From assembly GCA_036378175.1 (NCBI GenBank), contig DASUWY010000017.1:62001-126000 (forward strand): a stretch of DNA of 64,000 bases. The letters are read 5' to 3'. The DNA comes from Thermoleophilaceae bacterium. GTDB lineage: Bacteria; Actinomycetota; Thermoleophilia; Solirubrobacterales; Thermoleophilaceae. The notes below the pieces were generated by a model, which saw nothing but the letters and a program-made list of their open reading frames with translations, was not told where the DNA came from and did no database searches. Made by a program: the position numbers and the translations under genes. Shown here in pieces: positions 46,076 through 59,854 of this stretch. Positions within the stretch are counted from its first letter, which is position 1; each line of letters starts with the position of its first letter.

Positions 46076-47995
46076 ATGCGAACCGTGGTGTGCCTCGTCG
46101 GCGGCGGGAATGACGAAACGGCGGCCGCCAACCTGAGGGCGCATCTGCCGCGCGATGTGGATCTGGTCTTCGACCTGACGCAGGTGCCGCCGGGTGACGT
46201 TGTGCTCGTGGAGGCCGGTTGCGCCGTCGCCCCGGGCTGGTTCGAGTTGCTGAGAGACGCGGCCTACTCGGACTCCATCATCGCTACGGCCAGCGCCCTC
46301 GCGGATCACTGCCCGGAGGCCGCGGTGGCCGAGCGAGCGAGAATCGCGGCAGGCGCCTCGCTGAGACTCCGGCCGCGGCTGCTCGGGGCCACCGGTCCGT
46401 GTGTATACGTGCGCCGGACCGCGATCGAGCTTGCAGGCGCGCCTCAGGGCGGTATGGACGACTTCTCGCGGCGATGCGCCGCCGCGGGCCTGAGCCACGT
46501 ACTTGCGGATGACGTGCTGGTGGGCGGCGGCCCGCCCGGCGCTCTCGGCCCGCGGCGAGGCGCACCGGCAACCCTGATGCGTTCCCTCGCCGCTGTGCGC
46601 AGCGCGCTCGACGGACTGTCCGTGACGATCGACTGCCGGCATCTCACCGGCACGCTCACCGGGATCCAGGTGCACACCCTCGAGCTGATGGCCGCGCTCG
46701 CCAGGCGGGGGCGTTTTCGCATCCGGGCGCTCACCTCGCCACTGGTCTCGGACGAGGCGCGCGAGATCCTCGCGGCCGTTGACGGCGTCGAGGAGCTCGA
46801 CTACGACGCACTGGGGCCGGACACCCCGCTGTCGGACATCTTTCACCGTCCCTATCAGGTGACGAATGAGGATGATCTGCGCGTGTCTCACCTAACGGGC
46901 GAACGCTTCGTGGTGACCCAGCACGATCTGATCGGCTACCGGAATCCGGCGTACTCCGGCTCCGATGAGGGCTGGCACGCCTACCGCGAGCTCACGCGGC
47001 GAGCTCTCGCCGGCGCGGACCGAGTGGCGTTCGTCTCGCGGCACGCGGCAGCCGATGCCCTGGCCGACGACCTCGTGGATGCCGACGCGATCCGCGTTGT
47101 CCCGAACGGTGTGGACCATGCGGCCGTTACGCCGCCCGAAGGCGTGCGGCCGCCGGCCGCGCCGGAGCCTGGGTTTCTCATCTGCCTGGGCACCAACTTC
47201 CGTCACAAGAACCGGCCCTTCGCGCTCGCCCTGCTCGCGGAGCTGCGCTCACGGCACGGCTTCGGCGGGGGTCTGGTACTCGCCGGCCCGCACATGGAGC
47301 ACGGCTCATCCGCCGACGAGGAGGCCGCCTTCATGGCGGCGCATCCGCACCTCCTCGACCATGTAACCGACCTCGGCGCTGTGAGCGAGGCCGAAAAGGC
47401 TTGGCTTTACGCGAATGCCGCCGCCGTGGTGTACCCGAGCGTGTACGAGGGCTTTGGGCTGATCCCGTTCGAGGCGGCGGCCGCCGGCGTGCCGTGCCTG
47501 TTCGCGCCTCAGGCCGCGCTGTCCGAGGTGCTGCCGCCCGATACCGCGCTGCTCGTCCCGTGGGACGCGGCCGCGAGCGCCGACCGCTGCGCGGACGTGC
47601 TGCGGGAGGGACGCCCAAGGCGCCGGCTCGTGAAGCAGTTGCGAACGGCGGCCGAGCCCTTCACGTGGGACGCGGCCGCCGAGGCGGTGCAGGCGCTGTA
47701 CGACGAGACCGTGGTGGCGCCGCGCCGTGAAGCTGGAGCGTTCGCGCGCGAGGCGATCGGCCTGCGTGAGGAGCGCAATCGCTTCAAGTGGGAGCTGGAC
47801 GCCCTCCAGGCGCAGCACGACGCTCTCATCGAAGCCATCGGCGAGGACGGCCTGAGGCTCGTGGGACACGGTGGGCTGCTGCCGAACGAGGTCCGGGCGT
47901 CGCTGCGAGCGGTGGCCTTGCGGCCGCGGCTCGCCCAGCGCCTGTACGCATTGATCGGGCTCCTGTCGCGGCTGCCCCGCAGGGGAGCGGGATGA
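46076..47995 (+). CDS. GT4 glycosyltransferase with degenerate N-terminal GT2-like segment
   Basis: This is a 639-residue protein. Residues 1-165 resemble the metal-site half of a GT2 (VVLVEAGCAVAPGWFELLRDAAYSDSIIATASAL) but lack an intact nucleotide-binding start, so this part is probably a relic. Residues about 180-530 are a complete GT4 module: GTLTGIQVHTLELMAALARRGRFRIRAL, RVVPNGVDHAAV, GFLICLGTNFRHKNRPFALALLAEL, donor motif YPSVYEGFGLIPFEAAAAGVPCLFAPQAALSEVLP. A coiled coil (REAIGLREERNRFKWELDALQAQHDALIEAIG) and a helical tail follow. The stop overlaps the FkbM-like gene (ATGA). Confidence 0.86.
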   Translation: MRTVVCLVGGGNDETAAANLRAHLPRDVDLVFDLTQVPPGDVVLVEAGCAVAPGWFELLRDAAYSDSIIATASALADHCPEAAVAERARIAAGASLRLRPRLLGATGPCVYVRRTAIELAGAPQGGMDDFSRRCAAAGLSHVLADDVLVGGGPPGALGPRRGAPATLMRSLAAVRSALDGLSVTIDCRHLTGTLTGIQVHTLELMAALARRGRFRIRALTSPLVSDEAREILAAVDGVEELDYDALGPDTPLSDIFHRPYQVTNEDDLRVSHLTGERFVVTQHDLIGYRNPAYSGSDEGWHAYRELTRRALAGADRVAFVSRHAAADALADDLVDADAIRVVPNGVDHAAVTPPEGVRPPAAPEPGFLICLGTNFRHKNRPFALALLAELRSRHGFGGGLVLAGPHMEHGSSADEEAAFMAAHPHLLDHVTDLGAVSEAEKAWLYANAAAVVYPSVYEGFGLIPFEAAAAGVPCLFAPQAALSEVLPPDTALLVPWDAAASADRCADVLREGRPRRRLVKQLRTAAEPFTWDAAAEAVQALYDETVVAPRREAGAFAREAIGLREERNRFKWELDALQAQHDALIEAIGEDGLRLVGHGGLLPNEVRASLRAVALRPRLAQRLYALIGLLSRLPRRGAG

Positions 47996-48972
47996 ACGAG
48001 CACGGCACGAACGCCGATCCGGTGTCCAACTTCCTGCGCTCCGCTGCGGCGCCGGGAATGGCCGGCCTTGACGCAGGCGCCGGGGCCGGCCGGTTCACCC
48101 GTGCGCTCGCGGAAGCCGTGACTGCCAGCGGGTCGGTCCTGGCCCTCGAGCCGGACGCGGCCAGCGCGGCGATGATCGAGCAGAACACCGCGGGGCAGGG
48201 CGCACCGGTGAGGGTGGAGCAGGCCGCGGCATGGAGAGAGCCCGGCACCGCGAAGGTGAGCATGTCGGGCGGCGCCCTGGTTCCGACCGTGCGCGTGGAT
48301 GACCTCGTGCAGACGCTCGACATCGCCCGGATCGACAACGACGGCACGGAGCACGTGGCCATCCAGGGGATGGAGCGCGTGATCGCGCGCTGCCGCCCGG
48401 TGATGCTCGTGGCCTTTTGGCCGCGCGGGATACAGAAGCTCGGCGACAACCCGGCCGCGGTGCTCGACTACTACCGGGAGCTGGGCTACGACCTTGCGCT
48501 GCTCGAGGCTCCGGAGCTGCCGAGACTGCCGGCGGCGGACGACCTGATCGAAGCAGCGAGCACGGCGCCCGGCGGCCGCGGGTGGCTCACGCTCACCCCA
48601 AGCGCCGCGCGGCGCGGCACTCTGGTTGAGCTCCGGACCGCGGCGGAGCTGATCGAGCGCGGGCCAGCCGCGGCAGCGGGCCGGCTCGGTGGGGCGGGCG
48701 GGCGGCTGCGGGTGCTGATCCTGCGGCTGATGCGCCCCTACACCGCTCACCAGAACGAGGTGGATCGCCACCTGCTCGACGCGATCGAAGAGGTACGTCG
48801 CGCACTGCTCGAGGCGCGCGGCCGGGCGGAGGAGCAACGCTCCAGTCAGAGGCGCGGGCTGCGTTCGCTGGAGCAGCTCCGGGCCGAGCTCGAGCGGGTG
48901 CGTGGTGCCGCGGCCGAGCTCGAGGTGATCAAGGCGCGGCTGGAGGCGCTGGAGCAGCGGCGTCCCGACTGA
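47992..48972 (+). CDS. FkbM-like methyltransferase with C-terminal coiled coil
   Basis: This is a 326-residue protein from ATG 47992 (ATGA overlap; AGGGGAG upstream). SAM motif I is divergent (GLDAGAGAGRFTRALAEAVTASGSVLALEPDAASAAMIEQN). The FkbM core is IARIDNDGTEHVAIQGMERVIARCRPVMLVAFWPRG (residues 111-146). Residues about 238-272 carry LRVLILRLMRPYTAHQNEVDRHLLDAIEEV, which recurs at the end of the 827-residue GT downstream. A Gln/Glu-rich coiled coil finishes the protein. It is predicted to O-methylate a sugar. The last 44 nt overlap a convergent gene. Confidence 0.78.
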   Translation: MNEHGTNADPVSNFLRSAAAPGMAGLDAGAGAGRFTRALAEAVTASGSVLALEPDAASAAMIEQNTAGQGAPVRVEQAAAWREPGTAKVSMSGGALVPTVRVDDLVQTLDIARIDNDGTEHVAIQGMERVIARCRPVMLVAFWPRGIQKLGDNPAAVLDYYRELGYDLALLEAPELPRLPAADDLIEAASTAPGGRGWLTLTPSAARRGTLVELRTAAELIERGPAAAAGRLGGAGGRLRVLILRLMRPYTAHQNEVDRHLLDAIEEVRRALLEARGRAEEQRSSQRRGLRSLEQLRAELERVRGAAAELEVIKARLEALEQRRPD

Positions 48973-49894
48973 TCCACCAGAACGCCCCGCCATGCCCCTC
49001 CGCCTCGCGCAGGCGCGGATGGCTCCAGAGAGGAGCGATCACGTCGCCGAACTCGGAGCGGACGCTCACGTACCAGGCGGCCAGCACGGGCTCGATGGCC
49101 ACGTTCCCCGCCAGCAGGTGCGCGGCGAGCATGTACTGCTCGGAGTAGTAGCGGTCGGCGAACTCCTGCGGATAGTCGAACGGGAGGTAGATGTCGTGCA
49201 CTCCCACGAGCACGCCGGCCGGCAGGCGCGGGACCACCTCGCAGAAGAAGACGGTCACGTCCGAGTTCATGAACGTCCTGTGCGAGCCGTCGAAGAAGAG
49301 GACATCGCCCTCCCGCAGCTCGCTGAACACGCTCTGATCTGCAGCCTCGAGCGGCGCCCTCACCACGCGGTCGCAGATCGCGTCAACCTCGGCACGTGGA
49401 TGCGGATCGATCGAGACGATGCGGGTGCGCAGCTCGCCGTCGCGGCGCGCTCTGTGAGCGACCAGGGTGGAGTTGCCCGAACCGATCTCGAGGTAGAGCG
49501 CCGGCGAGCGGGCGCGAAGGAACGCATAGATGGCAGCGGTGTCGAGCCCGGGCAGGTAGCCGTTGACCCATGACGGCTCGGCAGGGTCGTGGCTGTGCAG
49601 GGCGATCTCGGCGAGCTGATCGCGGTAGTGGACGATCGTCTCGAGCGATTGCCTATAGGCACGCGCGTGGCTGCCGATCAGCTCGTTGAGCTCCGGATGC
49701 GGGTCCCAGCGCGGCTCGTTGAGCGCGGAGGTTGGGTAGTCGATGCGGATGAAGTTCTGGCCGCGGTAATCGAGAGCGACGAACTGCTTGCCCGTGTAGT
49801 GCTCCGCGAGCCCGAGACCGGTGCGACCAAGCCACGCCGACGCGGTCGCGCGCAGCCGGGCGGGCAGAAGGCGTTGTCGGAGCTCACGTGGCAA
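48929..49894 (-). CDS. Class I SAM-dependent methyltransferase (Methyltransf_24-like)
   Basis: This is a 321-residue protein from TTG 49894, which lies 10 nt after the upstream stop with TAGGA before it; the frame further up (to 49999) overlaps the previous gene. The methyltransferase core is in the second half: LYLEIGSGNSTLVAHRARRDGEL (motif I), IVSIDPHPRAEVDAICDRVVRAPLE, LREGDVLFFDGSHRTFMNSDVTVFFCEVVPRL and GVLVGVHDIYLPFDYP. The N-terminal 120 residues are specific to this subgroup. The likely target is a glycan sugar. It is third in a minus-strand operon with two GT genes. Confidence 0.82.
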   Translation of the reverse strand: MPRELRQRLLPARLRATASAWLGRTGLGLAEHYTGKQFVALDYRGQNFIRIDYPTSALNEPRWDPHPELNELIGSHARAYRQSLETIVHYRDQLAEIALHSHDPAEPSWVNGYLPGLDTAAIYAFLRARSPALYLEIGSGNSTLVAHRARRDGELRTRIVSIDPHPRAEVDAICDRVVRAPLEAADQSVFSELREGDVLFFDGSHRTFMNSDVTVFFCEVVPRLPAGVLVGVHDIYLPFDYPQEFADRYYSEQYMLAAHLLAGNVAIEPVLAAWYVSVRSEFGDVIAPLWSHPRLREAEGHGGAFWWISRDAAAPAPPAAP

Positions 49895-49904
49895 GTGGGC
49901 GATC

Positions 49905-50639
49905 CTAGGGCAGGGCGCGCAGCGCGCGGTCGACGATGGGCGCGTCTGGATCGGCGCCGAGCTCGTGGAGACGATCCAGCACAAGCCGCTCGCCGGCATT
50001 GCCCGCTCGGAGCAGGCCCAACTCGACCGCGAGGCCGCGAGCCACCCGGCTCGCGTCGTGCTCTCGTTCCACGAGCAGCCGGCCAGCGCGGGACATGCGC
50101 GTGGCCCGCTCCATGTCCCCGCCGAGCTCGCTTGCCAAGCGGGCGAAGTCCTCCGGCCTTCCCACCACCACCTCCCGACCGTGCTTCGCGCCGACCATCT
50201 CGGCCCCGGCTGAGTCGGTCACACAGGGCACGCCGAGCGCGAGGAACCGCAGCAGCGACTCCCCCCGGGTCACGGCGGCCGAGGCGAGCTTCTCCTCGAG
50301 GGCATCGGCCTCGTCCTCCCCGACGACGAGCAGAGACGGAAGGCCGAGCAGCGTGCGCCAGCGAGATCGCACGAACGGCGTCGTCCATTGCATTGCCGAC
50401 GCATCGATCGTGCCGCAGGGCGGCGCCACCGCGCAGGGCCGGCCATCGCGCGGATCGAGTCCCGTCCTCGACGCAAGCCACGCGTCCGGATCCTGGTCGT
50501 GGCCCGCCCGGGGGCGGCACCAGCGCTCGAGAGCGCCCACCAGGACCTCGAAGCCGCGCGGCGGCGGCCCGTCCACCAGCAGGCCGAGGACCGGCAGCTC
50601 GCTCAGCGCGCCAGCAGACGTTCGACCACCCGCTCCCAA
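49905..50639 (-). CDS. Reduced GT-B-like protein (donor-domain part only)
   Basis: This is a 244-residue protein at most. Only the C-terminal half of a GT-B transferase is visible: RTLLGLPSLLVVGEDEADALEEKLASAAVTRGESLLRFLALGVPCVTDSAGAEMVGAKHGREVVVGRPEDFARLASELG, ending in a helical tail. The first 100 residues are short and atypical, so an acceptor domain is missing or minimal. GTG 50639 overlaps the upstream GT4 gene by 37 nt; GTG 50576 is an alternative start. It may be a decayed gene, or a subunit working with the adjacent complete GT4. Confidence 0.68.
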   Translation of the reverse strand: MGAGGRTSAGALSELPVLGLLVDGPPPRGFEVLVGALERWCRPRAGHDQDPDAWLASRTGLDPRDGRPCAVAPPCGTIDASAMQWTTPFVRSRWRTLLGLPSLLVVGEDEADALEEKLASAAVTRGESLLRFLALGVPCVTDSAGAEMVGAKHGREVVVGRPEDFARLASELGGDMERATRMSRAGRLLVEREHDASRVARGLAVELGLLRAGNAGERLVLDRLHELGADPDAPIVDRALRALP

Positions 50640-51616
50640 CCCAGGTTCTCCACTCGCTGGCGGCCCGCTTCACCCATTCGCCGCGCAAGCTCGCGATCCG
50701 CGGCGAGCGAATCGATTGCGCTCGCCACCCCGGCGGCGCCGCCGTCCGTGACGATGCCCGTCACCCCATCCTCGACCCACTCGAGCACGCCGCCCGAGTC
50801 GCTCGCTGTGATCACTGGCTTCCCCGCACAGAACGCCTGCAGCGTGCCATAGCCGTAGTCCTCGTCGTGGGGCGCGTACACCACGGCCAGGCAGGACCTG
50901 TACAGCTCGACCAGCCGGTCGTCGGGTACGAAGCCGAGCAGCTCCACGCGGTCAGCCGCGCCGAGTCGCTTCACCGTGGCGCGCAGGGCCGTCTCCATGG
51001 AACCGCTCCCGGCGAGGACCCCTCGCACCGCCCCGCTGGACGACGCGACTCCCTCGACGAGCAGCTCGGGGCGCTTGTTCGCCTCAAGCCGCGACACACA
51101 CAGGACGTAGTCGTCGAACGGGCCCGGCCCCAGCCGATCGTGCAGCGGGGGAGGGTGATACAGCGGCGCACCCTCCACGCCGTTGAATCGCGCAAGCCGG
51201 TCCGCCACAACTCGGGACGTGGTGTAGATCTGCGTCGCCTCCTCGAGCGCCCTGGCGTCCCACTCGCTCAGCAGCCGCTGCGTGGCGAGCGCTTCCGGGT
51301 CCAGGCCGAAGTCGGACCAGGGTGAGTCCACCGCGTCGTACGCCGAGCGGTGCTGGTGGAAGAGCCAGACCACCTTCCGTGGGTGCCGGACGAAGTAGGA
51401 GGGAAAGTTCGTCGCGATCACGACGTCGGCGTCGATCGGAAGGAGACGCCAGGCGAGGGGCGCGTCAAGGATCCGCTTGCGGTCCCAGACCACGGGAAGT
51501 CGCACCAGGTCGGCGCGGTGACCCGCAACCTCCAGGGCATTCACGAGGTTCTCCATGTGGAGCTCCGCCCCACCACGCATGTAGGGGACGTGCGCGCCGC
51601 AGACGACGATGTCCAT
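50603..51616 (-). CDS. GT4 glycosyltransferase
   Basis: This is a 337-residue GT-B enzyme from ATG 51616. The N-domain is MDIVVCGAHVPYMRGGAELHMENLVNALEVAGHRADLVRLP. The C-domain is YVLCVSRLEANKRPELLVEGVA, RVELLGFVPDDRLVELYRSCLAVVYAPHDEDYGYGTLQAFCAGKPVITASDSGGVLEWV, which carries the donor-binding E-x7-E-like region (here with Tyr/Gly substitutions). It is the first gene of a three-gene minus-strand operon and nearly head-to-head with the next plus-strand GT gene. Confidence 0.89.
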   Translation of the reverse strand: MDIVVCGAHVPYMRGGAELHMENLVNALEVAGHRADLVRLPVVWDRKRILDAPLAWRLLPIDADVVIATNFPSYFVRHPRKVVWLFHQHRSAYDAVDSPWSDFGLDPEALATQRLLSEWDARALEEATQIYTTSRVVADRLARFNGVEGAPLYHPPPLHDRLGPGPFDDYVLCVSRLEANKRPELLVEGVASSSGAVRGVLAGSGSMETALRATVKRLGAADRVELLGFVPDDRLVELYRSCLAVVYAPHDEDYGYGTLQAFCAGKPVITASDSGGVLEWVEDGVTGIVTDGGAAGVASAIDSLAADRELARRMGEAGRQRVENLGWERVVERLLAR

Positions 51617-51638
51617 GAGGGTTCGACAGGATAAGCCG

Positions 51639-52820
51639 GTGGCACACCGCGGAAAGCTCGGGTTCGTCCCACCACGCTACGGTCGTGAGGTGGTTGGTGG
51701 CGCAGAGGCGATTCTGCGCGATGCCGCCCACGGCCTGGCGGCGCGCGGTTACGAGGTGGAAGTGCTCACGAGCTGCGTGCGCGACCACTACACGTGGCGG
51801 GACGAGTACGAGCCGGGCTCGAGCCGTGATGGCGATGTGACGGTTCGCCGCTTCCCCGGCGTTGTGAGCGACCGCTCGGAGCGCTTCCGCTACGAGTCCG
51901 CGATCCACGCAGGGCACAAGCTCAGCCTCGCCGAGCAGCAGGAGTGGATGAACGACGACTTTCGGTCGCCCGAGCTCTTCCATTACCTGCTCCGGCACCG
52001 GCGTGAGTTCCGGGGCCTCTTCTTCGCGCCCTATATGTTCTGGTCGACCTTCGCCTGCTCGCAGGTGGCTCCGGAGCGGACGGTTCTCGTGCCGTGCCTC
52101 CACGACGAGCCGTACGCCAGGCTCGAGATCTTCCGGCCGGAGTTTTCGGGGCCTCGCGGGATGCTCTTCCTCTCCGACCCCGAGGCCGCCGTGGCGCGTC
52201 GTCTGTTCAGTCTCCCGGCTCGGCAGGCGATCACCGGCGCGGGCGTGCATGTGCCCGCGCGCTACGACCCAGAGGGCTTCAGACAGCGTCACGACATCAC
52301 GGATCCGTTCGTCCTGTACGCGGGCAGGCGCGAGGGAGGCAAAGGCTGGGAGCTCCTGCTCGAGGCGTTCGCTCGCGCGGTTCACGTGCACGACCTGCCG
52401 TTCAAGTTCGTAACGATGGGCACCGGGCCGGTGCACCCGCCAGCGGAGATCGCCGACCGTGTGGTGGATCTCGGATTCGCCCCCGCGCGCGATCGGGACG
52501 ATGCATTCGCGGCGGCCGACGTCTACATACAGCCGAGCGCCTACGAGAGCTTTTCGCTGACAGTCATGGAGGCCTGGCTCGCCGGCACGCTCGTGGTGGC
52601 CAACGCGGCGAGCGAGGTGGTGAGCTGGCACTGCGAACGCTCCGGCGCGGGCCTGACCTACCGAAACGGGCTCGAGCTCGGACAGTGCCTCAGCTTCGCC
52701 GCCGAGGCGCCGGACGTGGCCGCATCGCTGGCCTCCCGCGGGCGTGAGTACGTGCTGGAGAACTACACCTGGGATGCCGTCCTCGATCGCATGGAGACCG
52801 CGGTGGAGGAATGGCTGTGA
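51639..52820 (+). CDS. GT4 glycosyltransferase
   Basis: This is a 393-residue GT-B enzyme. GTG 51639 is chosen because AGGA lies 7 nt upstream and because ATG 51609 would overlap the divergent gene start. The N-domain is KLGFVPPRYGREVVGGAEAILRDAAHGLAARGYEVEVLTS. The C-domain is FVLYAGRREGGKGWELLLEAFARAV and YIQPSAYESFSLTVMEAWLAGTLVVANAASEVVSWHCERS (E-x7-E donor motif). It overlaps the next gene by 10 nt, beginning a co-directional run of GT, Wzt and Wzm genes. Confidence 0.89.
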   Translation: MAHRGKLGFVPPRYGREVVGGAEAILRDAAHGLAARGYEVEVLTSCVRDHYTWRDEYEPGSSRDGDVTVRRFPGVVSDRSERFRYESAIHAGHKLSLAEQQEWMNDDFRSPELFHYLLRHRREFRGLFFAPYMFWSTFACSQVAPERTVLVPCLHDEPYARLEIFRPEFSGPRGMLFLSDPEAAVARRLFSLPARQAITGAGVHVPARYDPEGFRQRHDITDPFVLYAGRREGGKGWELLLEAFARAVHVHDLPFKFVTMGTGPVHPPAEIADRVVDLGFAPARDRDDAFAAADVYIQPSAYESFSLTVMEAWLAGTLVVANAASEVVSWHCERSGAGLTYRNGLELGQCLSFAAEAPDVAASLASRGREYVLENYTWDAVLDRMETAVEEWL

Positions 52821-55294
52821 GGATCCTGATGGTCAGCCCCTATCCGCCCGTGCGCGACGGCATCGCGAACTATGCGGTGCAGTCAGTCGCGCGATTGCTG
52901 GATGAGGGCAATGACGTCGAGGTGGTGTCGCCCTGGCCCTCGGCGGCGCACCACCATGTGGACCTGAGAGATCCCGAGAAGCTCGCCGAACTGGCCAGCC
53001 TGGCGCGTGACCGTGATCGGCTGATCCTCCAGTTCCAGCCGGAGATGTTCCGCACGGCGGGGTTCTCGCCCGAACGCCGCGCCGAGGTGTACGACGCCCT
53101 TGCCTCCGCGCTGAGGGCGGCGGCGCGCTCCGAGGTGCGCGTGCACGAGTTCGACTACACGGAGGCGAACGCCGAGTCCGAGAGGCTGCGAGCCGCTGCG
53201 CGAGCTTTTTGGCAGACACCAAGCGCGATCGAGGTGCACACGCCCTCTGAACGCGACGATCTCACGCGGCTCTTCGGCGTGGAGCCGGCGCGGATCGCCG
53301 TGGTGGAGCACGGCGCGGACTTCGAGCGGCGCACGAAGTCCTCGAAGGCGGAGGCCAGGAAGGCGCTCGGCCTGCCGGCCGACGAGCGGATGCTGCTCGC
53401 GATCGGGTTCATCCAGCCGCACAAGGGGTTCGACCGCGCTGTCAGGGCTTTCGACGGACTTGCCGGCGAGGGCGCACGGCTCGACGTGGTCGGCTCCGTG
53501 CGCGTGGACGAGCCGGAGTGGCTGTCTTACAGGGACGGGCTCGCCGCCCAGATCGCGTCCACGCCGGGCGCTTACCTGCACGAGGGCTACGTGAGCGACC
53601 AGGCCTTTGACGAATGGCTGGTGGCGGCCGACGCGGTGGTGCTCCCCTATCGCCACATCTGGTCATCCGGCGTGCTCGAGCGCGCCGCTCTCTACGGCAC
53701 CCCGGTGATCTCCACGGACGTGGGGAACCTGGCTCAGCAGGCCGGGACGCGCGGTAGCGTGACGCTCGTGAGCGACGATCAGGAGCTCGCGGCCGCGATG
53801 CGGGAGGCGGTGGGCGCCGCGCCGGAGCCGAGCTCGGCGGCACAGCCATGGCCCGCTGGAAGCCGGGAGACGGTGACGGCGGAGGTGCGCAGGCGGGCAG
53901 CTGCGGAGCGCACCCTCGAGCTCGACCCTGCCGCCCCCAGCGTGCGCGTTATGGGGTATCTGAGCGACAGCCTCGGAGTTGGCCAGGCAGCTCGCCTGTA
54001 TCTAATGGCGCTGCAGGCCGCGGGCCTCCCGGTGTCGACTATCAGCGTGGATCCCGACCCTCCGGACAGCGGCGTGACCAGAGCGGGACGGCAGCGATTC
54101 ACGGACATCCCCGGAACGGCCGATCCCGACTTCAACCTCATCTGCGTGAACGGCGACCAGCTGCCGCGCTTCGCCCGCGAACTGGGTGACGGGTTCTTCG
54201 CCGGACGCACCAACGTCGGCGTGTGGGCGTTTGAAACGGACGTGCTCCCAAGCGGCTGGGTGGAGGCCGCGGCGCCGCTCGACGAGGTCTGGGTGAACTC
54301 GCGGTTCATGGCCGGCAACCTCGGCCGCCTCTTGCCGCTGCCGGTGGTGGCCGTGCCGCCTCCGGTCCCGGCGCCGCCGGTGGATGCGGAGGACCCGCTC
54401 GGGCTCGAGGGCGCGTTCAGCTTCCTGTTCACGCTCGACCTGATGAGCACGATCCGTCGCAAGAATCCCCTCGGTGTGATGGAGGCATATCGGCGTGCCT
54501 TCGATCCTGGCGACGGCGCTGCGCTCGTGATCAAGACCGTCAACGGCGAGCTCCGGCCAGACGCGTTGGCCGAGCTCGAGAGCGCGGCCGGCGGGCGTGA
54601 GGACATCAGGGTCGTCGATCTCCACGTGAGCGACCCGGAGAAGGGAGCGATGCTCAGCGCGTGCGGCGCCTACGTGTCGCTGCACCGGAGTGAGGGCTTC
54701 GGGCTGATGCTCGCGGAGGCGATGGCCTTGGGAAAACCTGTGATCGCAACCGGGTGGTCGGGCAACCTGGACTTCATGAATGAGGGGAACTCGTTCCTCG
54801 TCGACTCGAAGCTCGTGGAGGTGGGCCCTGGCGACGAGATCTACCCGGCCGCCGGCCAATGGGCCGAGCCAGAGCTGGATCACGCGGCCACACTCATGCG
54901 GCGTGTCTTCGACAATCCCGAGGAAGCCACCCGCCGCGGCGAGCGTGCGCGCGCGGACATAGCCGAGTTGCTTTCCCCGCGACGATCTGGCGAGATCGCC
55001 CGCGCGCGCCTCGAGCGGTTACGTGTGGAACGTCCGGTCTCCGCCCCTGCCGTGACGCAGCGAGAGCTCGGCGCGTCGTTCCAGGAGCTCCAGGCCCGGC
55101 TCGACTTCGACCTGCGCCGAGGGGCGGAATCCGGCCGCGGAGGGCTCGCTTCCGTGCTCCGCCGGATCGTCCTCCGGCTGATGCTGCCGTTCACGACCCA
55201 CGAACGCCAGCTCGATCGCGCGCTCGTCGACGCGCTGGCTGAGCTGGACGAGCGCCTTCGTGCGCTGGAATCGAACAGTGACCGCCGCCGCTAG
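52811..55294 (+). CDS. Tandem GT4-GT4 glycosyltransferase with shared C-terminal module
   Basis: This is an 827-residue protein with two complete GT-B modules. The first (1-365) is RILMVSPYPPVRDGIANYAVQSVARLL, LLAIGFIQPHKGFDRAVRAFDGL, IWSSGVLERAALYGTPVISTDVGNLAQQ. The second (385-730) is VRVMGYLSDSLGVGQAARLYLMALQAAGLPVSTISVD, FLFTLDLMSTIRRKNPLGVMEAYRRAF, LHRSEGFGLMLAEAMALGKPVIATGWSGNLDFM. It probably adds two sugars in sequence. Residues about 782-820 (LRRIVLRLMLPFTTHERQLDRALVDALAEL) match the tail of the FkbM-like protein. It overlaps the preceding gene by 10 nt; Wzt follows 12 nt later. Confidence 0.9.
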   Translation: MAVRILMVSPYPPVRDGIANYAVQSVARLLDEGNDVEVVSPWPSAAHHHVDLRDPEKLAELASLARDRDRLILQFQPEMFRTAGFSPERRAEVYDALASALRAAARSEVRVHEFDYTEANAESERLRAAARAFWQTPSAIEVHTPSERDDLTRLFGVEPARIAVVEHGADFERRTKSSKAEARKALGLPADERMLLAIGFIQPHKGFDRAVRAFDGLAGEGARLDVVGSVRVDEPEWLSYRDGLAAQIASTPGAYLHEGYVSDQAFDEWLVAADAVVLPYRHIWSSGVLERAALYGTPVISTDVGNLAQQAGTRGSVTLVSDDQELAAAMREAVGAAPEPSSAAQPWPAGSRETVTAEVRRRAAAERTLELDPAAPSVRVMGYLSDSLGVGQAARLYLMALQAAGLPVSTISVDPDPPDSGVTRAGRQRFTDIPGTADPDFNLICVNGDQLPRFARELGDGFFAGRTNVGVWAFETDVLPSGWVEAAAPLDEVWVNSRFMAGNLGRLLPLPVVAVPPPVPAPPVDAEDPLGLEGAFSFLFTLDLMSTIRRKNPLGVMEAYRRAFDPGDGAALVIKTVNGELRPDALAELESAAGGREDIRVVDLHVSDPEKGAMLSACGAYVSLHRSEGFGLMLAEAMALGKPVIATGWSGNLDFMNEGNSFLVDSKLVEVGPGDEIYPAAGQWAEPELDHAATLMRRVFDNPEEATRRGERARADIAELLSPRRSGEIARARLERLRVERPVSAPAVTQRELGASFQELQARLDFDLRRGAESGRGGLASVLRRIVLRLMLPFTTHERQLDRALVDALAELDERLRALESNSDRRR

Positions 55295-56569: not shown

Positions 56570-57435
56570 GCAGCCAGGCGGAGATGGCCTCTATTCCCAC
56601 GGAGAGCCTCGGCCGGCCGATCAAGGGCCCCTCAGCTCTTGCGGGCGATCGCCGCCGGATGCTCAGTCTCACCTGGACGCTCGCGATCACCGACTTCCGG
56701 CTGAAGTTCTTCGGGTCGGTGCTCGGCTATCTCTGGCAGCTCGGGCGGCCGCTACTTCTTTTCGGGATCCTCTACACCGTGTTCACCCACGTCGTGAAGC
56801 TCGGCAGCGGGGTGAACTACTACCCGGTGGTCCTGCTCACGGGGATCGTGATGTTCTCCTTCGTGGCTGAGTGCACGGCCGGAGCGGTCTCGTCGGTGGT
56901 CGATCGCGAGGGAATCGTCCGGAAGATTCAGTTCCCCCGGCTTGCGATCCCCCTCGCGGTGGTCGTAACCGGCTATCTCAACCTTGGGCTGAATCTCATC
57001 GCCGTGCTCGTGTTCATGTTCGCCTCGGGCGTATCGATCGGTGTGCGGTGGCTTGAGCTTCCGCTGATCCTCCTCTTCGGAGGAGTCTTCGTCAGCGGCA
57101 TCGCGATGATGCTGTCCGCCCTCTACGTGCGCTTTCGCGACGTCCGGCCGATCTGGGACGTGGTACTGCAGATGCTGTTCTACGCGGCGCCGGTGCTCTA
57201 CCCGATTGAGAAGGTCTCTGCCGGCCCTCTCCGGACGCTGATGATGTGCAACCCGTTGGCGGTGATGATCCAGCAGACGCGGCACGCGCTCATCGACCCC
57301 ACCGCGCCGTCGGCGGCCGACGCGATTGGGGGCGCGGTCCGGCTACTCATTCCGTTCGGGATCACCGCCGGGCTCCTGGTGCTTGGATTCTGGATCTTCA
57401 ACCGCGAGGCGCCGCGCATAGCGGAGGAGCTGTGA
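56566..57435 (+). CDS. wzm: Polysaccharide ABC exporter permease subunit
   Basis: This is a 289-residue ABC-2 type permease from TTG 56566 (TTGA overlap); ATG 56584 is an in-frame alternative with a CGGAG upstream. Six transmembrane helices. Conserved features: LTWTLAITDFRLKFFGSVLGYLWQLGRPLLLFGILYTVFTHVV, the coupling-helix region EGIVRKIQFPRLAIPLAVV, and LYVRFRDVRPIWDVVLQMLFYAAPVLYPIEKV. With Wzt it forms the channel that exports the finished lipid-linked glycan. It overlaps the small coiled-coil gene by 4 nt. Confidence 0.93.
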   Translation: MSSQAEMASIPTESLGRPIKGPSALAGDRRRMLSLTWTLAITDFRLKFFGSVLGYLWQLGRPLLLFGILYTVFTHVVKLGSGVNYYPVVLLTGIVMFSFVAECTAGAVSSVVDREGIVRKIQFPRLAIPLAVVVTGYLNLGLNLIAVLVFMFASGVSIGVRWLELPLILLFGGVFVSGIAMMLSALYVRFRDVRPIWDVVLQMLFYAAPVLYPIEKVSAGPLRTLMMCNPLAVMIQQTRHALIDPTAPSAADAIGGAVRLLIPFGITAGLLVLGFWIFNREAPRIAEEL

Positions 57436-57656
57436 GCGAGCCGTCGCTCGACACCGAGCTCGACCAGCTTCGCCGTGAGCGGGCCCGGCTCTGGGAGCAG
57501 CTTCATGAGCAGCGGGCGGCCGAGCGCGAGGTCGAGTTCCTGCGGGCGGAGGTCGCGCGCATCGAGTCGTCGCTCTCCTGGCGGATCACGAAGCCGCTGC
57601 GTGACGTGAAGACGCAGTGGCGCAAGCTCAAGCGACGGCTGTCCTCCACCGACTGA
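57432..57656 (+). CDS. Small coiled-coil protein with SWRITKPLR motif
   Basis: This is a 74-residue protein from GTG 57432, overlapping the wzm stop as GTGA, and 2 nt before the next GT gene. Residues 7-48 are a heptad coiled coil (LDTELDQLRRERARLWEQLHEQRAAEREVEFLRAEV). Then SSLSWRITKPLRDVKTQWRKLKRRL gives a basic amphipathic end. The SWR-x-TxPLR phrase is one I have seen at the ends or hinges of bacterial glycosyltransferases and O-antigen methyltransferases. As a stand-alone protein it could tether or measure the glycan-assembly complex at the exporter. The function is inferred. Confidence 0.75.
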   Translation: MSEPSLDTELDQLRRERARLWEQLHEQRAAEREVEFLRAEVARIESSLSWRITKPLRDVKTQWRKLKRRLSSTD

Positions 57657-57658
57657 CC

Positions 57659-59854
57659 ATGGCCGCGGGCGTCGTGACCGTGGCGATCCCGGTGCTCAAC
57701 GGGGCTCGCTATCTCGAGGAGGTGCTCACCGCGGTGCGGGCGCAGGAGCTGCCCGAGGGCACCGAGCTCGAGATCCTCGTGATCGACTCGGGCTCCACAG
57801 ACGGCTCCCTCTCGATCGCCGAGCGCCACGGCGTGCGCATCCACAGGATCGCGAAGAGCGAGTTCTCCCACGGGGGCACGCGCAACCTGGCGATGAAGAT
57901 CGCTCGCGGTGACCACGTGGCGTTCATCACCCAGGACGCCACGCCGGCGCACGAGCGCTGGCTCGCGTCCCTGCTCGCGGGCTTCGGCAGGGCTGACGAC
58001 GTGGCGCTCGTGTTCGGCCCGCACGACCCGCGCCCGGACGCGAGCCACATGATCAAGTGCGAGATGGAGCGCCACTTCGCCCTCTGGCCCGACGGCGACG
58101 TCCAGCGGCTGGACCGCTCGCCCCAAGGGCTTCTCGACTACCGCGCGTATCCCGGAAAGATCAGCTTCTTCAGCGACGTGAACGGCTGTGTGGCGCGCTG
58201 GGCGTGGGAGCAGATCCAGTACCGCGAGGTGCCATACGCCGAGGACCAATTGCTCGGGCGCGAGATGATCGAGGCGGGCTTCTCGAAGGTGTACATGGCG
58301 GACGCCGCCGTGCTGCATTCGCACGACTACCCGGCCGGTCAGTTTCTCCGTCGCTACTTCGACGAGTTCCGCGCGATGCGCGAGGTGCTCGGGCACCGGG
58401 AGCCGTGGGGCATCAAGCGAACTCCGTGGGCAGTGCGCGGCCTATCGGGGGCGGACAAGCGCTGGCTGCGGGCGCGCGGCGTGCACGGCAAGGACCTGGT
58501 GAAGCCGCTGTCGCGCTCGGTCCTCCACCACACGATCCGCATGACGGGAGCGATTGTGGGCTCGCGAGCCGACAAACTCCCGGCACCAGTGCGAGGGAAG
58601 CTCTCCTTGGAAGGACGCTCGACGTTCACTCCGTATGACGTGCCCGCCAGCCCGCTGCTCGAGCAGACCACCGGGAGCTGGCTGCGCAGACGGCCCGAGC
58701 GCACGAAGTTCACCACCAATTGGTGGTTCGACTTCGTGCGCCATGCGTATCCGCGCAAGCCCTTGCGGATCGACTCCGACGGCGTGCCGCGGGGCGAGGG
58801 ACCCTGGACCATCGCCTGGGTGGTACCCGCCTGGAAGATCGGCTCCGGCGGCCACACCACGATCTTCCGCCTCGTTCGCCAGATGGAGCTGCGCGGGCAC
58901 CGCTGCGCGATCTTCGTGTTCGACCACAAGGGTCAGCTCAACGAGTCGGGCAGCCAGCTGCGCGACCAGATCCGCGAGCACTTCATCCCGATCGACGCCC
59001 CCGTGTTCAAGGGGCTCGACGACTTCGACTCCGCGGACGTGGCCATCGCCACCGAATGGTCCACCGCCTTCCCGGTGCGCGACCTGCCGCGCTGCCGCGA
59101 GAAGGTCTACCTCGTGCAGGACGACGAGCCGCGCTTCTTCGCCACCTCGTCCGAGTCCATCTGGGCGGAGGAGACATACCGGATGGGCTACCGCTGCATC
59201 GCCTACACGCCCTGGATGGCGGAGATCCTCGAGCGCGATTACGGCCTGGAGGCGCGCTGGTTCGAGTGCGGGACGGACCTCGGCACCTACACCTTCGCCG
59301 GCGAGGAGGGGCGCGAGCCGGGACATGTGGCGGTGTACGGCCGGCGCGAGACCCCGCGCCGCGCCGTCGAGCTCGCCCTCGCCGGCATCGCGAACCTCTT
59401 CGAGCGGCGGCCGGGCATGCGCGTGACGCTGTTCGGGTCGAACATCAGGGGCAGCGCGCCCGTCCCCTGCCAGGACCTCGGGGTGGTGTCGCCGCGCGAG
59501 CTGGCGGCGCTCTACCGCCGCGCGAGCGCGGGCGTGGTGTTCTCACTCACCACGCACTCGCTCGTGGCTCAGGAGATGATGGCCAGCGGCCTGCCGGTGG
59601 TGGAGCTCGAGGGCGACAACGTGGCGTCGGCTCTCGGCGAGTCGGGCGAGCACGTGATGCTCGCCGAGCACACGCCGGACTCGATCGCCGACGCCCTCGA
59701 GCGCGTGCTGGACGACCGCGAGGCGGCGGCTGCGATGGCGCGCCGTGCGCGAGCGTTCGTGGAGGAACGCACGTGGGACCGCGCGGGCGATCAGGTGGAG
59801 AGCGCGCTGCGGGAGTACCTGGCGAACCCGCGCGAGTCCGTCGCGCAGCGGTGA
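57659..59854 (+). CDS. GT2-GT4 fusion glycosyltransferase, WsaF-like C-domain
   Basis: This is a 731-residue protein from ATG 57659. Residues 1-240 are a GT2 of rhamnosyltransferase type (VTVAIPVLNGARYLEEVLTAVRAQELPEGTELEILVIDSGSTDGS, HVAFITQDATPAHERWL, GCVARWAWEQIQYREVPYAEDQLLGREMIEAG). After a linker, residues 385-720 form a GT4 similar to WsaF (IAWVVPAWKIGSGGHTTIFRLVRQMELRGHRCAIFVFDH, KVYLVQDDEPRFFATSSESIWAEETYRMGYRCIAYTPWM, VFSLTTHSLVAQEMMASGLPVVEL). WsaF makes rhamnan in S-layer glycans, which fits rmlC in this locus. Rhamnose as donor is inferred. Confidence 0.88.
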   Translation: MAAGVVTVAIPVLNGARYLEEVLTAVRAQELPEGTELEILVIDSGSTDGSLSIAERHGVRIHRIAKSEFSHGGTRNLAMKIARGDHVAFITQDATPAHERWLASLLAGFGRADDVALVFGPHDPRPDASHMIKCEMERHFALWPDGDVQRLDRSPQGLLDYRAYPGKISFFSDVNGCVARWAWEQIQYREVPYAEDQLLGREMIEAGFSKVYMADAAVLHSHDYPAGQFLRRYFDEFRAMREVLGHREPWGIKRTPWAVRGLSGADKRWLRARGVHGKDLVKPLSRSVLHHTIRMTGAIVGSRADKLPAPVRGKLSLEGRSTFTPYDVPASPLLEQTTGSWLRRRPERTKFTTNWWFDFVRHAYPRKPLRIDSDGVPRGEGPWTIAWVVPAWKIGSGGHTTIFRLVRQMELRGHRCAIFVFDHKGQLNESGSQLRDQIREHFIPIDAPVFKGLDDFDSADVAIATEWSTAFPVRDLPRCREKVYLVQDDEPRFFATSSESIWAEETYRMGYRCIAYTPWMAEILERDYGLEARWFECGTDLGTYTFAGEEGREPGHVAVYGRRETPRRAVELALAGIANLFERRPGMRVTLFGSNIRGSAPVPCQDLGVVSPRELAALYRRASAGVVFSLTTHSLVAQEMMASGLPVVELEGDNVASALGESGEHVMLAEHTPDSIADALERVLDDREAAAAMARRARAFVEERTWDRAGDQVESALREYLANPRESVAQR

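What the first reader, a model, noticed from the sequence alone, without database searches (positions are those of the whole stretch)
48706..55258. A shared C-terminal module on two unrelated polysaccharide enzymes
The FkbM-like methyltransferase (48706-48804: LRLMRPYTAH, then D-x-L-DA-x-x-E) and the tandem GT4 (55154-55258: LRLMLPFTTH, then DRALVDALAEL) end in clearly homologous segments of about 35 residues (pattern L-R-x4-LRLM-x-P-[FY]-T-x-H-x4-DR-x-L-x-DA). Catalytic domains, lengths and neighbours differ, so the segment behaves as a portable tag, perhaps a membrane-surface helix or docking peptide for the assembly complex at Wzm/Wzt.
Basis: seen in the sequence. Interest (0 to 1): 0.6.

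Follow-up and report, generated by a model that had tools for sequence, protein, structure and literature searches.

The report
Shared helix tag on polysaccharide enzymes
Two different sugar-chain enzymes in this actinobacterium end in the same short helical segment, an unnamed movable part that related bacteria carry on chain-building and methyl-adding enzymes beside a sugar-chain exporter, where it most likely holds them together at the membrane.

Summary
An FkbM-type methyltransferase (segment 48697-48819) and a tandem GT4 glycosyltransferase (55148-55270) carry a homologous segment of about 41 residues (39% identical; shuffle z = 10). The own genome shows only these two copies. They are no closer to each other than to copies in other genomes, so recent local recombination is excluded. 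The segment occurs in 37 of 232 genomes of the order and, wherever the context is intact, sits beside a GT4 domain, a SAM methyltransferase or both. It is not strictly C-terminal: it is also found N-terminal and between GT4 and methyltransferase domains. FkbM homologues carry it C-terminally (window), N-terminally (one relative) or not at all. Tagged genes usually lie 1-23 kb from Wzt. AlphaFold predicts a helix running into a coiled coil. A diverged version precedes the same methyltransferase family in Acidobacteria and other phyla. No Pfam or PDB match. That methyltransferase is homologous to the one next to an O8-family wzm-wzt pair in E. coli, where the terminator WbdD is expected. Best reading: a membrane-proximal helix plus coiled coil that co-localises polymerase and terminator, working like WbdD's C-terminal region. 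Membrane binding and docking are inferred, not shown.

The parts
47992..48972 (+). FkbM-type methyltransferase carrying copy A; ATG overlaps the stop of the upstream GT4 gene (ATGA)
   Evidence: PF05050 E 3.4e-7, TIGR01444 above cut-off; start codon
48604..48960 (+). Whole helical tail of the methyltransferase: short helix (residues 203-221), then helix 237-321 containing copy A and the coiled coil
   Evidence: AlphaFold, pLDDT 76-98 over the long helix
48697..48819 (+). Copy A of the 41-residue segment
52811..55294 (+). Tandem GT4 protein carrying copy B
   Evidence: two GT4 stretches; GT-B matches in the PDB
55145..55288 (+). Helical tail of the GT4 protein (residues 779-826)
   Evidence: AlphaFold, pLDDT about 50-71
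55148..55270 (+). Copy B of the 41-residue segment
55307..56569 (+). Wzt, ATP-binding subunit with Wzt_C domain, directly downstream of the tagged GT4 gene
   Evidence: PF14524 E 2.1e-20 at G000:C17:118102-118491
57432..57656 (+). 74-residue coiled-coil protein ending in S-x-SWRITxPLR, a second kind of helical tail in the same locus; it does not carry the segment
   Evidence: sequence, and conserved copy in the same-genus genome L038 12039-12482

Best explanation
The segment is a portable membrane-proximal helix that runs into a coiled coil. It is carried by chain-extending GT4 enzymes and chain-modifying methyltransferases of ABC-transporter (Wzm/Wzt) polysaccharide loci. A basic helix (about +4 net, ending at the conserved RP[YF]T) probably lies on the inner membrane surface. 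The acidic heptad stretch that follows (HQxxVDxxLLxALxxL) starts a coiled coil that oligomerises the enzymes and spaces their catalytic domains. Where polymerase and methyltransferase are one protein, the segment sits between them. Where they are separate, as in this window, both carry a copy, so both are held at the same membrane site beside the exporter. Shown: homology, recurrence, positions, host enzymes, nearness to Wzt, predicted helix. Inferred: membrane contact, oligomerisation, co-assembly, role in chain length or termination.
For: Homology and recurrence. All 46 copies with intact context adjoin a GT4 and/or SAM methyltransferase. Fused GT4-segment-methyltransferase proteins and split pairs with a copy on each occur in related loci. 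Tag within about 23 kb of Wzt_C in 24 of the 34 tagged genomes that have Wzt_C, usually 1-9 kb. Continuous helix predicted; net charge +4 then -1.7; heptad periodicity near 103 degrees after the segment in A, L081 and L038. The methyltransferase of the fused proteins is homologous (E 5e-25 to 7e-29) to the one next to E. coli O8-family wzm-wzt, and the GT4 domains are homologous to the GT4 protein after it. [quoted passage not shown] PMC3482155).
Against: Membrane reading is weak: 6.6% of control stretches reach the mean moment of helix 1, and column shuffles of helix 1 are not significant. Partner tags of one genome are no more alike than tags of different genomes, so no sign of matched pairing. 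The E. coli O8-family methyltransferase lacks the segment. The window's methyltransferase is FkbM, not the WbdD-like family. G026, G156 and G166 have a tag but no Wzt_C match.
Confidence: 0.55

Rival explanations
1. A plain oligomerisation coiled coil: it makes a dimer or trimer of each enzyme on its own, with no membrane or partner role.
For: Heptad pattern and one long predicted helix; removal of the C-terminal helix makes WbdD monomeric (PMC3482155).
Against: The most conserved columns (R5, L9, R10, P14, Q19) lie in the basic part before the coil, which plain coiled coils do not conserve.
Confidence: 0.22
2. A docking peptide that binds the Wzm/Wzt transporter directly.
For: Nearness of tagged genes to Wzt_C.
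Against: Many untagged GT4 genes share these loci, three tagged genomes have no Wzt_C match, and Wzt_C is present in 130 of 195 untagged genomes.
Confidence: 0.12
3. An evolutionary leftover: a linker of an ancestral GT4-methyltransferase fusion that remained on each half after splitting, without a function of its own.
For: Fused proteins are common, and GT4 tags resemble GT4 tags more than methyltransferase tags (0.61 against 0.39).
Against: FkbM and Methyltransf_11 enzymes carry it too, FkbM at either end; the conserved motif would decay without selection.
Confidence: 0.09
4. Chance resemblance or recent local copying.
For: A weak two-row profile also hit lysyl-tRNA synthetase, so short matches do occur.
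Against: z = 10.2, DNA identity only 53%, recurrence at E down to 3e-21 on the same enzyme types.
Confidence: 0.02

Closest known systems
C-terminal region of WbdD (chain terminator of E. coli O8/O9a and Klebsiella O3/O5 antigens)
   Same: Coiled coil with a membrane-associated amphipathic helix on a methyltransferase of a Wzm/Wzt pathway (PMC11231755, PMC3482155); the methyltransferase next to E. coli O8-family wzm-wzt is homologous to the one in the fused tagged proteins.
   Different: No sequence match of the segment to that E. coli protein; here the helix precedes the coil, is shared with the GT4, and can be N-terminal or internal.
Multi-module polymerase-terminators: Klebsiella O7 ORF6 and WbbB, Geobacillus WsaE
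   Same: Methyltransferase or other terminator and GT modules joined in one chain, with a central coiled coil in O7 ORF6 (PMC11231755; PMC2943079 for WsaE).
   Different: Module order here is GT4 - segment - methyltransferase; the segment was not compared with those proteins.
Helix element before the same methyltransferase family in Acidobacteria, Nitrospirota and others (unnamed)
   Same: Collinear over 32-34 columns with P, Q and N/D in register; hhalign 92.8% and 87.8%; same place relative to a homologous enzyme.
   Different: Diverged sequence (GLKGRLRGFIWRLIGPxLxRQxxFNxxLVDHLNRN); mostly on the methyltransferase, sometimes on ORFs without a recognised catalytic domain.

Membership tests
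WbdD-type terminator tail | Coiled coil attached to the enzyme | tested here: met
   Long predicted helix with heptad periodicity in A; no dedicated coiled-coil predictor was available
WbdD-type terminator tail | Membrane-associated amphipathic helix | tested here: inconclusive
   Basic and moderately amphipathic; control stretches reach the same moment in 6.6% of cases
WbdD-type terminator tail | Recruits the polymerase | not testable with these tools
   Needs complexes or pull-downs
WbdD-type terminator tail | Sequence homology of the tail to the WbdD-type protein | tested here: not met
   No significant match of either profile to the E. coli O8-family methyltransferase
WbdD-type methyltransferase | Catalytic domain homologous to the methyltransferase next to O8-family wzm-wzt | tested here: not met
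   Met for the fused relatives (E 5e-25 and 7e-29), not for the window's FkbM enzyme
Wzm/Wzt-dependent glycan locus | wzm and wzt beside GT genes | tested here: met
   Wzt_C directly downstream of the tagged GT4 gene
Known domain family (Pfam, NCBIfam, PDB sequences) | Match over the segment | tested here: not met
   None

The most novel reading that the evidence does not exclude
The segment is an exchangeable assembly helix: copies on the chain extender and on the chain-modifying enzyme form mixed oligomers on the membrane, so different glycosyltransferases and methyltransferases can be combined into one chain-length-controlling complex, and the diverged versions in Acidobacteria and other phyla do the same.
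Probability: 0.25. Interest if true: 0.68.

Novelty: new variant of a known kind. Interest (0 to 1): 0.5.

Why it matters
How separate enzymes of ABC-transporter-dependent glycan pathways are held together, and how the terminator measures the chain, is known for only a few Gram-negative O antigens. A short conserved element that marks both extender and modifier in an actinobacterial order, with a likely diverged relative in several phyla, gives a sequence handle for finding such pairs and a small target for testing how the complex is built.

Tried and rejected
Hits at E about 1e-3 in many relatives were lysyl-tRNA synthetase (RPFTTHHNALDR), dropped as chance. L003 (flagellar) and L004 (NrnA/DHH) hits dropped as chance. 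Recent local recombination rejected: 53% DNA identity, no extra A-B similarity. Similarity of partner tags within a genome tested and not found. Homology of the segment to the E. coli O8-family methyltransferase tested and not found. No solved structure by sequence. The AlphaFold model of A is poor in its catalytic part (mean pLDDT 57) and is used only for the tail; that of B is good only for its second GT4 domain. The 'of' option did not take a locus, so other phyla were searched through 31 genomes already hit. Five literature searches found no description of this segment; the library lacks most subscription journals.

Full report
Check. The window lies in a draft genome of the order that includes Thermoleophilaceae and Solirubrobacteraceae; the same-genus genome G001 corresponds to a MAG titled Thermoleophilaceae bacterium. 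The FkbM methyltransferase ORF (47992-48972) and the tandem GT4 ORF (52811-55294) each contain one copy of the segment, at 48697-48819 and 55148-55270. Identity is 39% over 41 ungapped residues. The local score of the two C-termini is 115, against a maximum of 76 in 2000 shuffles. With A alone as query, B is the best other match in the 4.3-Mb genome (E 5.9e-6); the remaining hits are chance.

Not recent recombination. DNA identity between A and B is 53% (44% at third codon positions). A is as similar to copies in other genomes (up to 44%) as to B; B is closest (51%) to two copies at the C-termini of GT4 proteins in other genomes. In eight loci with two copies, the partners are no more alike (mean 0.387) than copies from different loci (0.389), whereas GT4 copies resemble GT4 copies (0.61). 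The segment mostly travels with its host enzyme.

Spread. A 12-row profile finds it in 37 of 232 genomes of the order at E <= 0.001, with E down to 3e-21. Among 396 genomes spread over the phylum only two outside the order match, both of one genus, corresponding to Rubrobacteraceae records. The consensus of 49 copies is RGAaRRAaLRaMRPYTahQreVDreLLrALreLdeRL; R5, L9, R10, P14, Q19 and the pair at 22-23 are the most conserved.

Where it sits. 46 of the 49 copies adjoin a recognised GT4 and/or methyltransferase domain; the other three are cut by contig ends. Arrangements: GT4-segment; GT4-segment-methyltransferase; segment-methyltransferase; methyltransferase (Methyltransf_11)-segment; FkbM-segment (this window only). 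Eight proteins counted in the first class have long extra C-terminal regions, of which at least three match a methyltransferase weakly (L081, L094, L098). The Rubrobacteraceae protein has two copies in a row. 'C-terminal module' is too narrow.

FkbM. Homologues of the window's FkbM domain are rare in the order. In G226 the homologue carries a segment-like stretch at its N-terminus (SRFGAAGLAARRVALRAGRPLSVPAERRASLLADAVAEI; 20.7 bits against a maximum of 11.4 in 20,000 shuffles). Two others (L220, L221) have none detectable. The same catalytic family with the element at either end or absent is the clearest sign of portability, though the G226 copy is diverged.

Other phyla. The methyltransferase of the fused proteins belongs to a wide family. 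In Acidobacteria, Nitrospirota, a Firmicute and others it is preceded by GLKGRLRGFIWRLIGPxLxRQxxFNxxLVDHLNRN. Profile-profile comparison with the segment is collinear over 32 columns: score 28.3, probability 92.8%, against a best score of 14.8 in 60 column shuffles. Smaller alignments give 87.8%. Four ORFs carry this version without a recognised catalytic domain: L203, L206, L213 and L216; L206 may be a frameshifted neighbour of a methyltransferase. The relationship is likely but rests on a short element; the shared position before homologous enzymes strengthens it.

Wzm/Wzt. Wzt_C is found in 34 of the 37 tagged genomes and 130 of 195 untagged ones (p = 0.0014, uncorrected for relatedness or completeness). 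In 24 of the 34 the tag lies within about 23 kb of Wzt_C on the same contig, usually 1-9 kb; these distances were read from the listed matches, and the other tags are mostly on other or short contigs. As a rough control in 12 genomes, 7 of roughly 150 listed GT4 matches lie within 9 kb of a Wzt_C and 26 within 22 kb. The 12 were chosen because tag and Wzt_C share a contig, so only the control figure should be used from them. Nearness shows membership in such loci, not binding to the transporter.

Structure. AlphaFold models the tail of A as one helix, residues 237-321 (pLDDT 76-98), after a short helix 203-221. In B the second GT4 domain is confident and is followed by a low-confidence linker and a helix 779-826 (pLDDT about 50-71). 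The B model matches GT-B enzymes in the PDB. Columns 1-14 carry about +4 net charge and columns 19-41 about -1.7. The best 11-residue moment averages 0.66 against 0.40 elsewhere in the same proteins, but 6.6% of control stretches reach it and column shuffles of helix 1 are not significant. The helix is well supported; the membrane reading is only suggested.

Mechanism. In E. [quoted passage not shown] PMC3482155). On an E. coli plasmid with an O8-family wzm-wzt pair, the next gene encodes a methyltransferase homologous to that of the fused actinobacterial proteins (E 5e-25 and 7e-29), followed by a GT4 protein homologous to the tagged GT4s. I take these to be WbdD and the polymerase from their place in the locus; the record does not name them. 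The actinobacterial GT4-segment-methyltransferase proteins then look like polymerase and terminator in one chain, and split pairs with a segment on each look like the same machine in two pieces. I infer that the segment keeps them together at the membrane. The window's tagged methyltransferase is FkbM, so what it methylates, and whether it ends chains, is open.

Novelty. Coiled coils and amphipathic helices in such complexes are known. This particular element has no Pfam, NCBIfam or PDB sequence match, and no description was found in the papers searched. I file it as a new variant of a known kind.

Noticed in passing
57432-57656: The 74-residue coiled-coil protein ends in SLSWRITKPLRDVKTQWRKLKRRL, and the E. 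coli O8-family methyltransferase has SRSWRITQPLRWLSLQRQLLR after its coil (L190). A near-identical copy lies in the same-genus locus L038 12039-12482. It may be a second kind of portable tail.
   Followed up: partly
L108 and L109 (Rubrobacteraceae): Two different copies of the segment in tandem between GT4 and methyltransferase.
   Followed up: no
57617-59854: A GT2 domain fused to a WsaF-like GT domain.
   Followed up: no
48929-49999 (-) against 47992-48972 (+): A Methyltransf_24 ORF on the opposite strand overlaps the end of the tagged methyltransferase gene by about 44 bases.
   Followed up: no
L128: Contig titled Bifidobacterium breve MAG encodes a GT4-methyltransferase protein resembling those of this actinobacterial group; probably misbinned.
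   Followed up: no
L218 (G222): An FkbM domain in one ORF behind a hexapeptide-repeat, acetyltransferase-like region.
   Followed up: no
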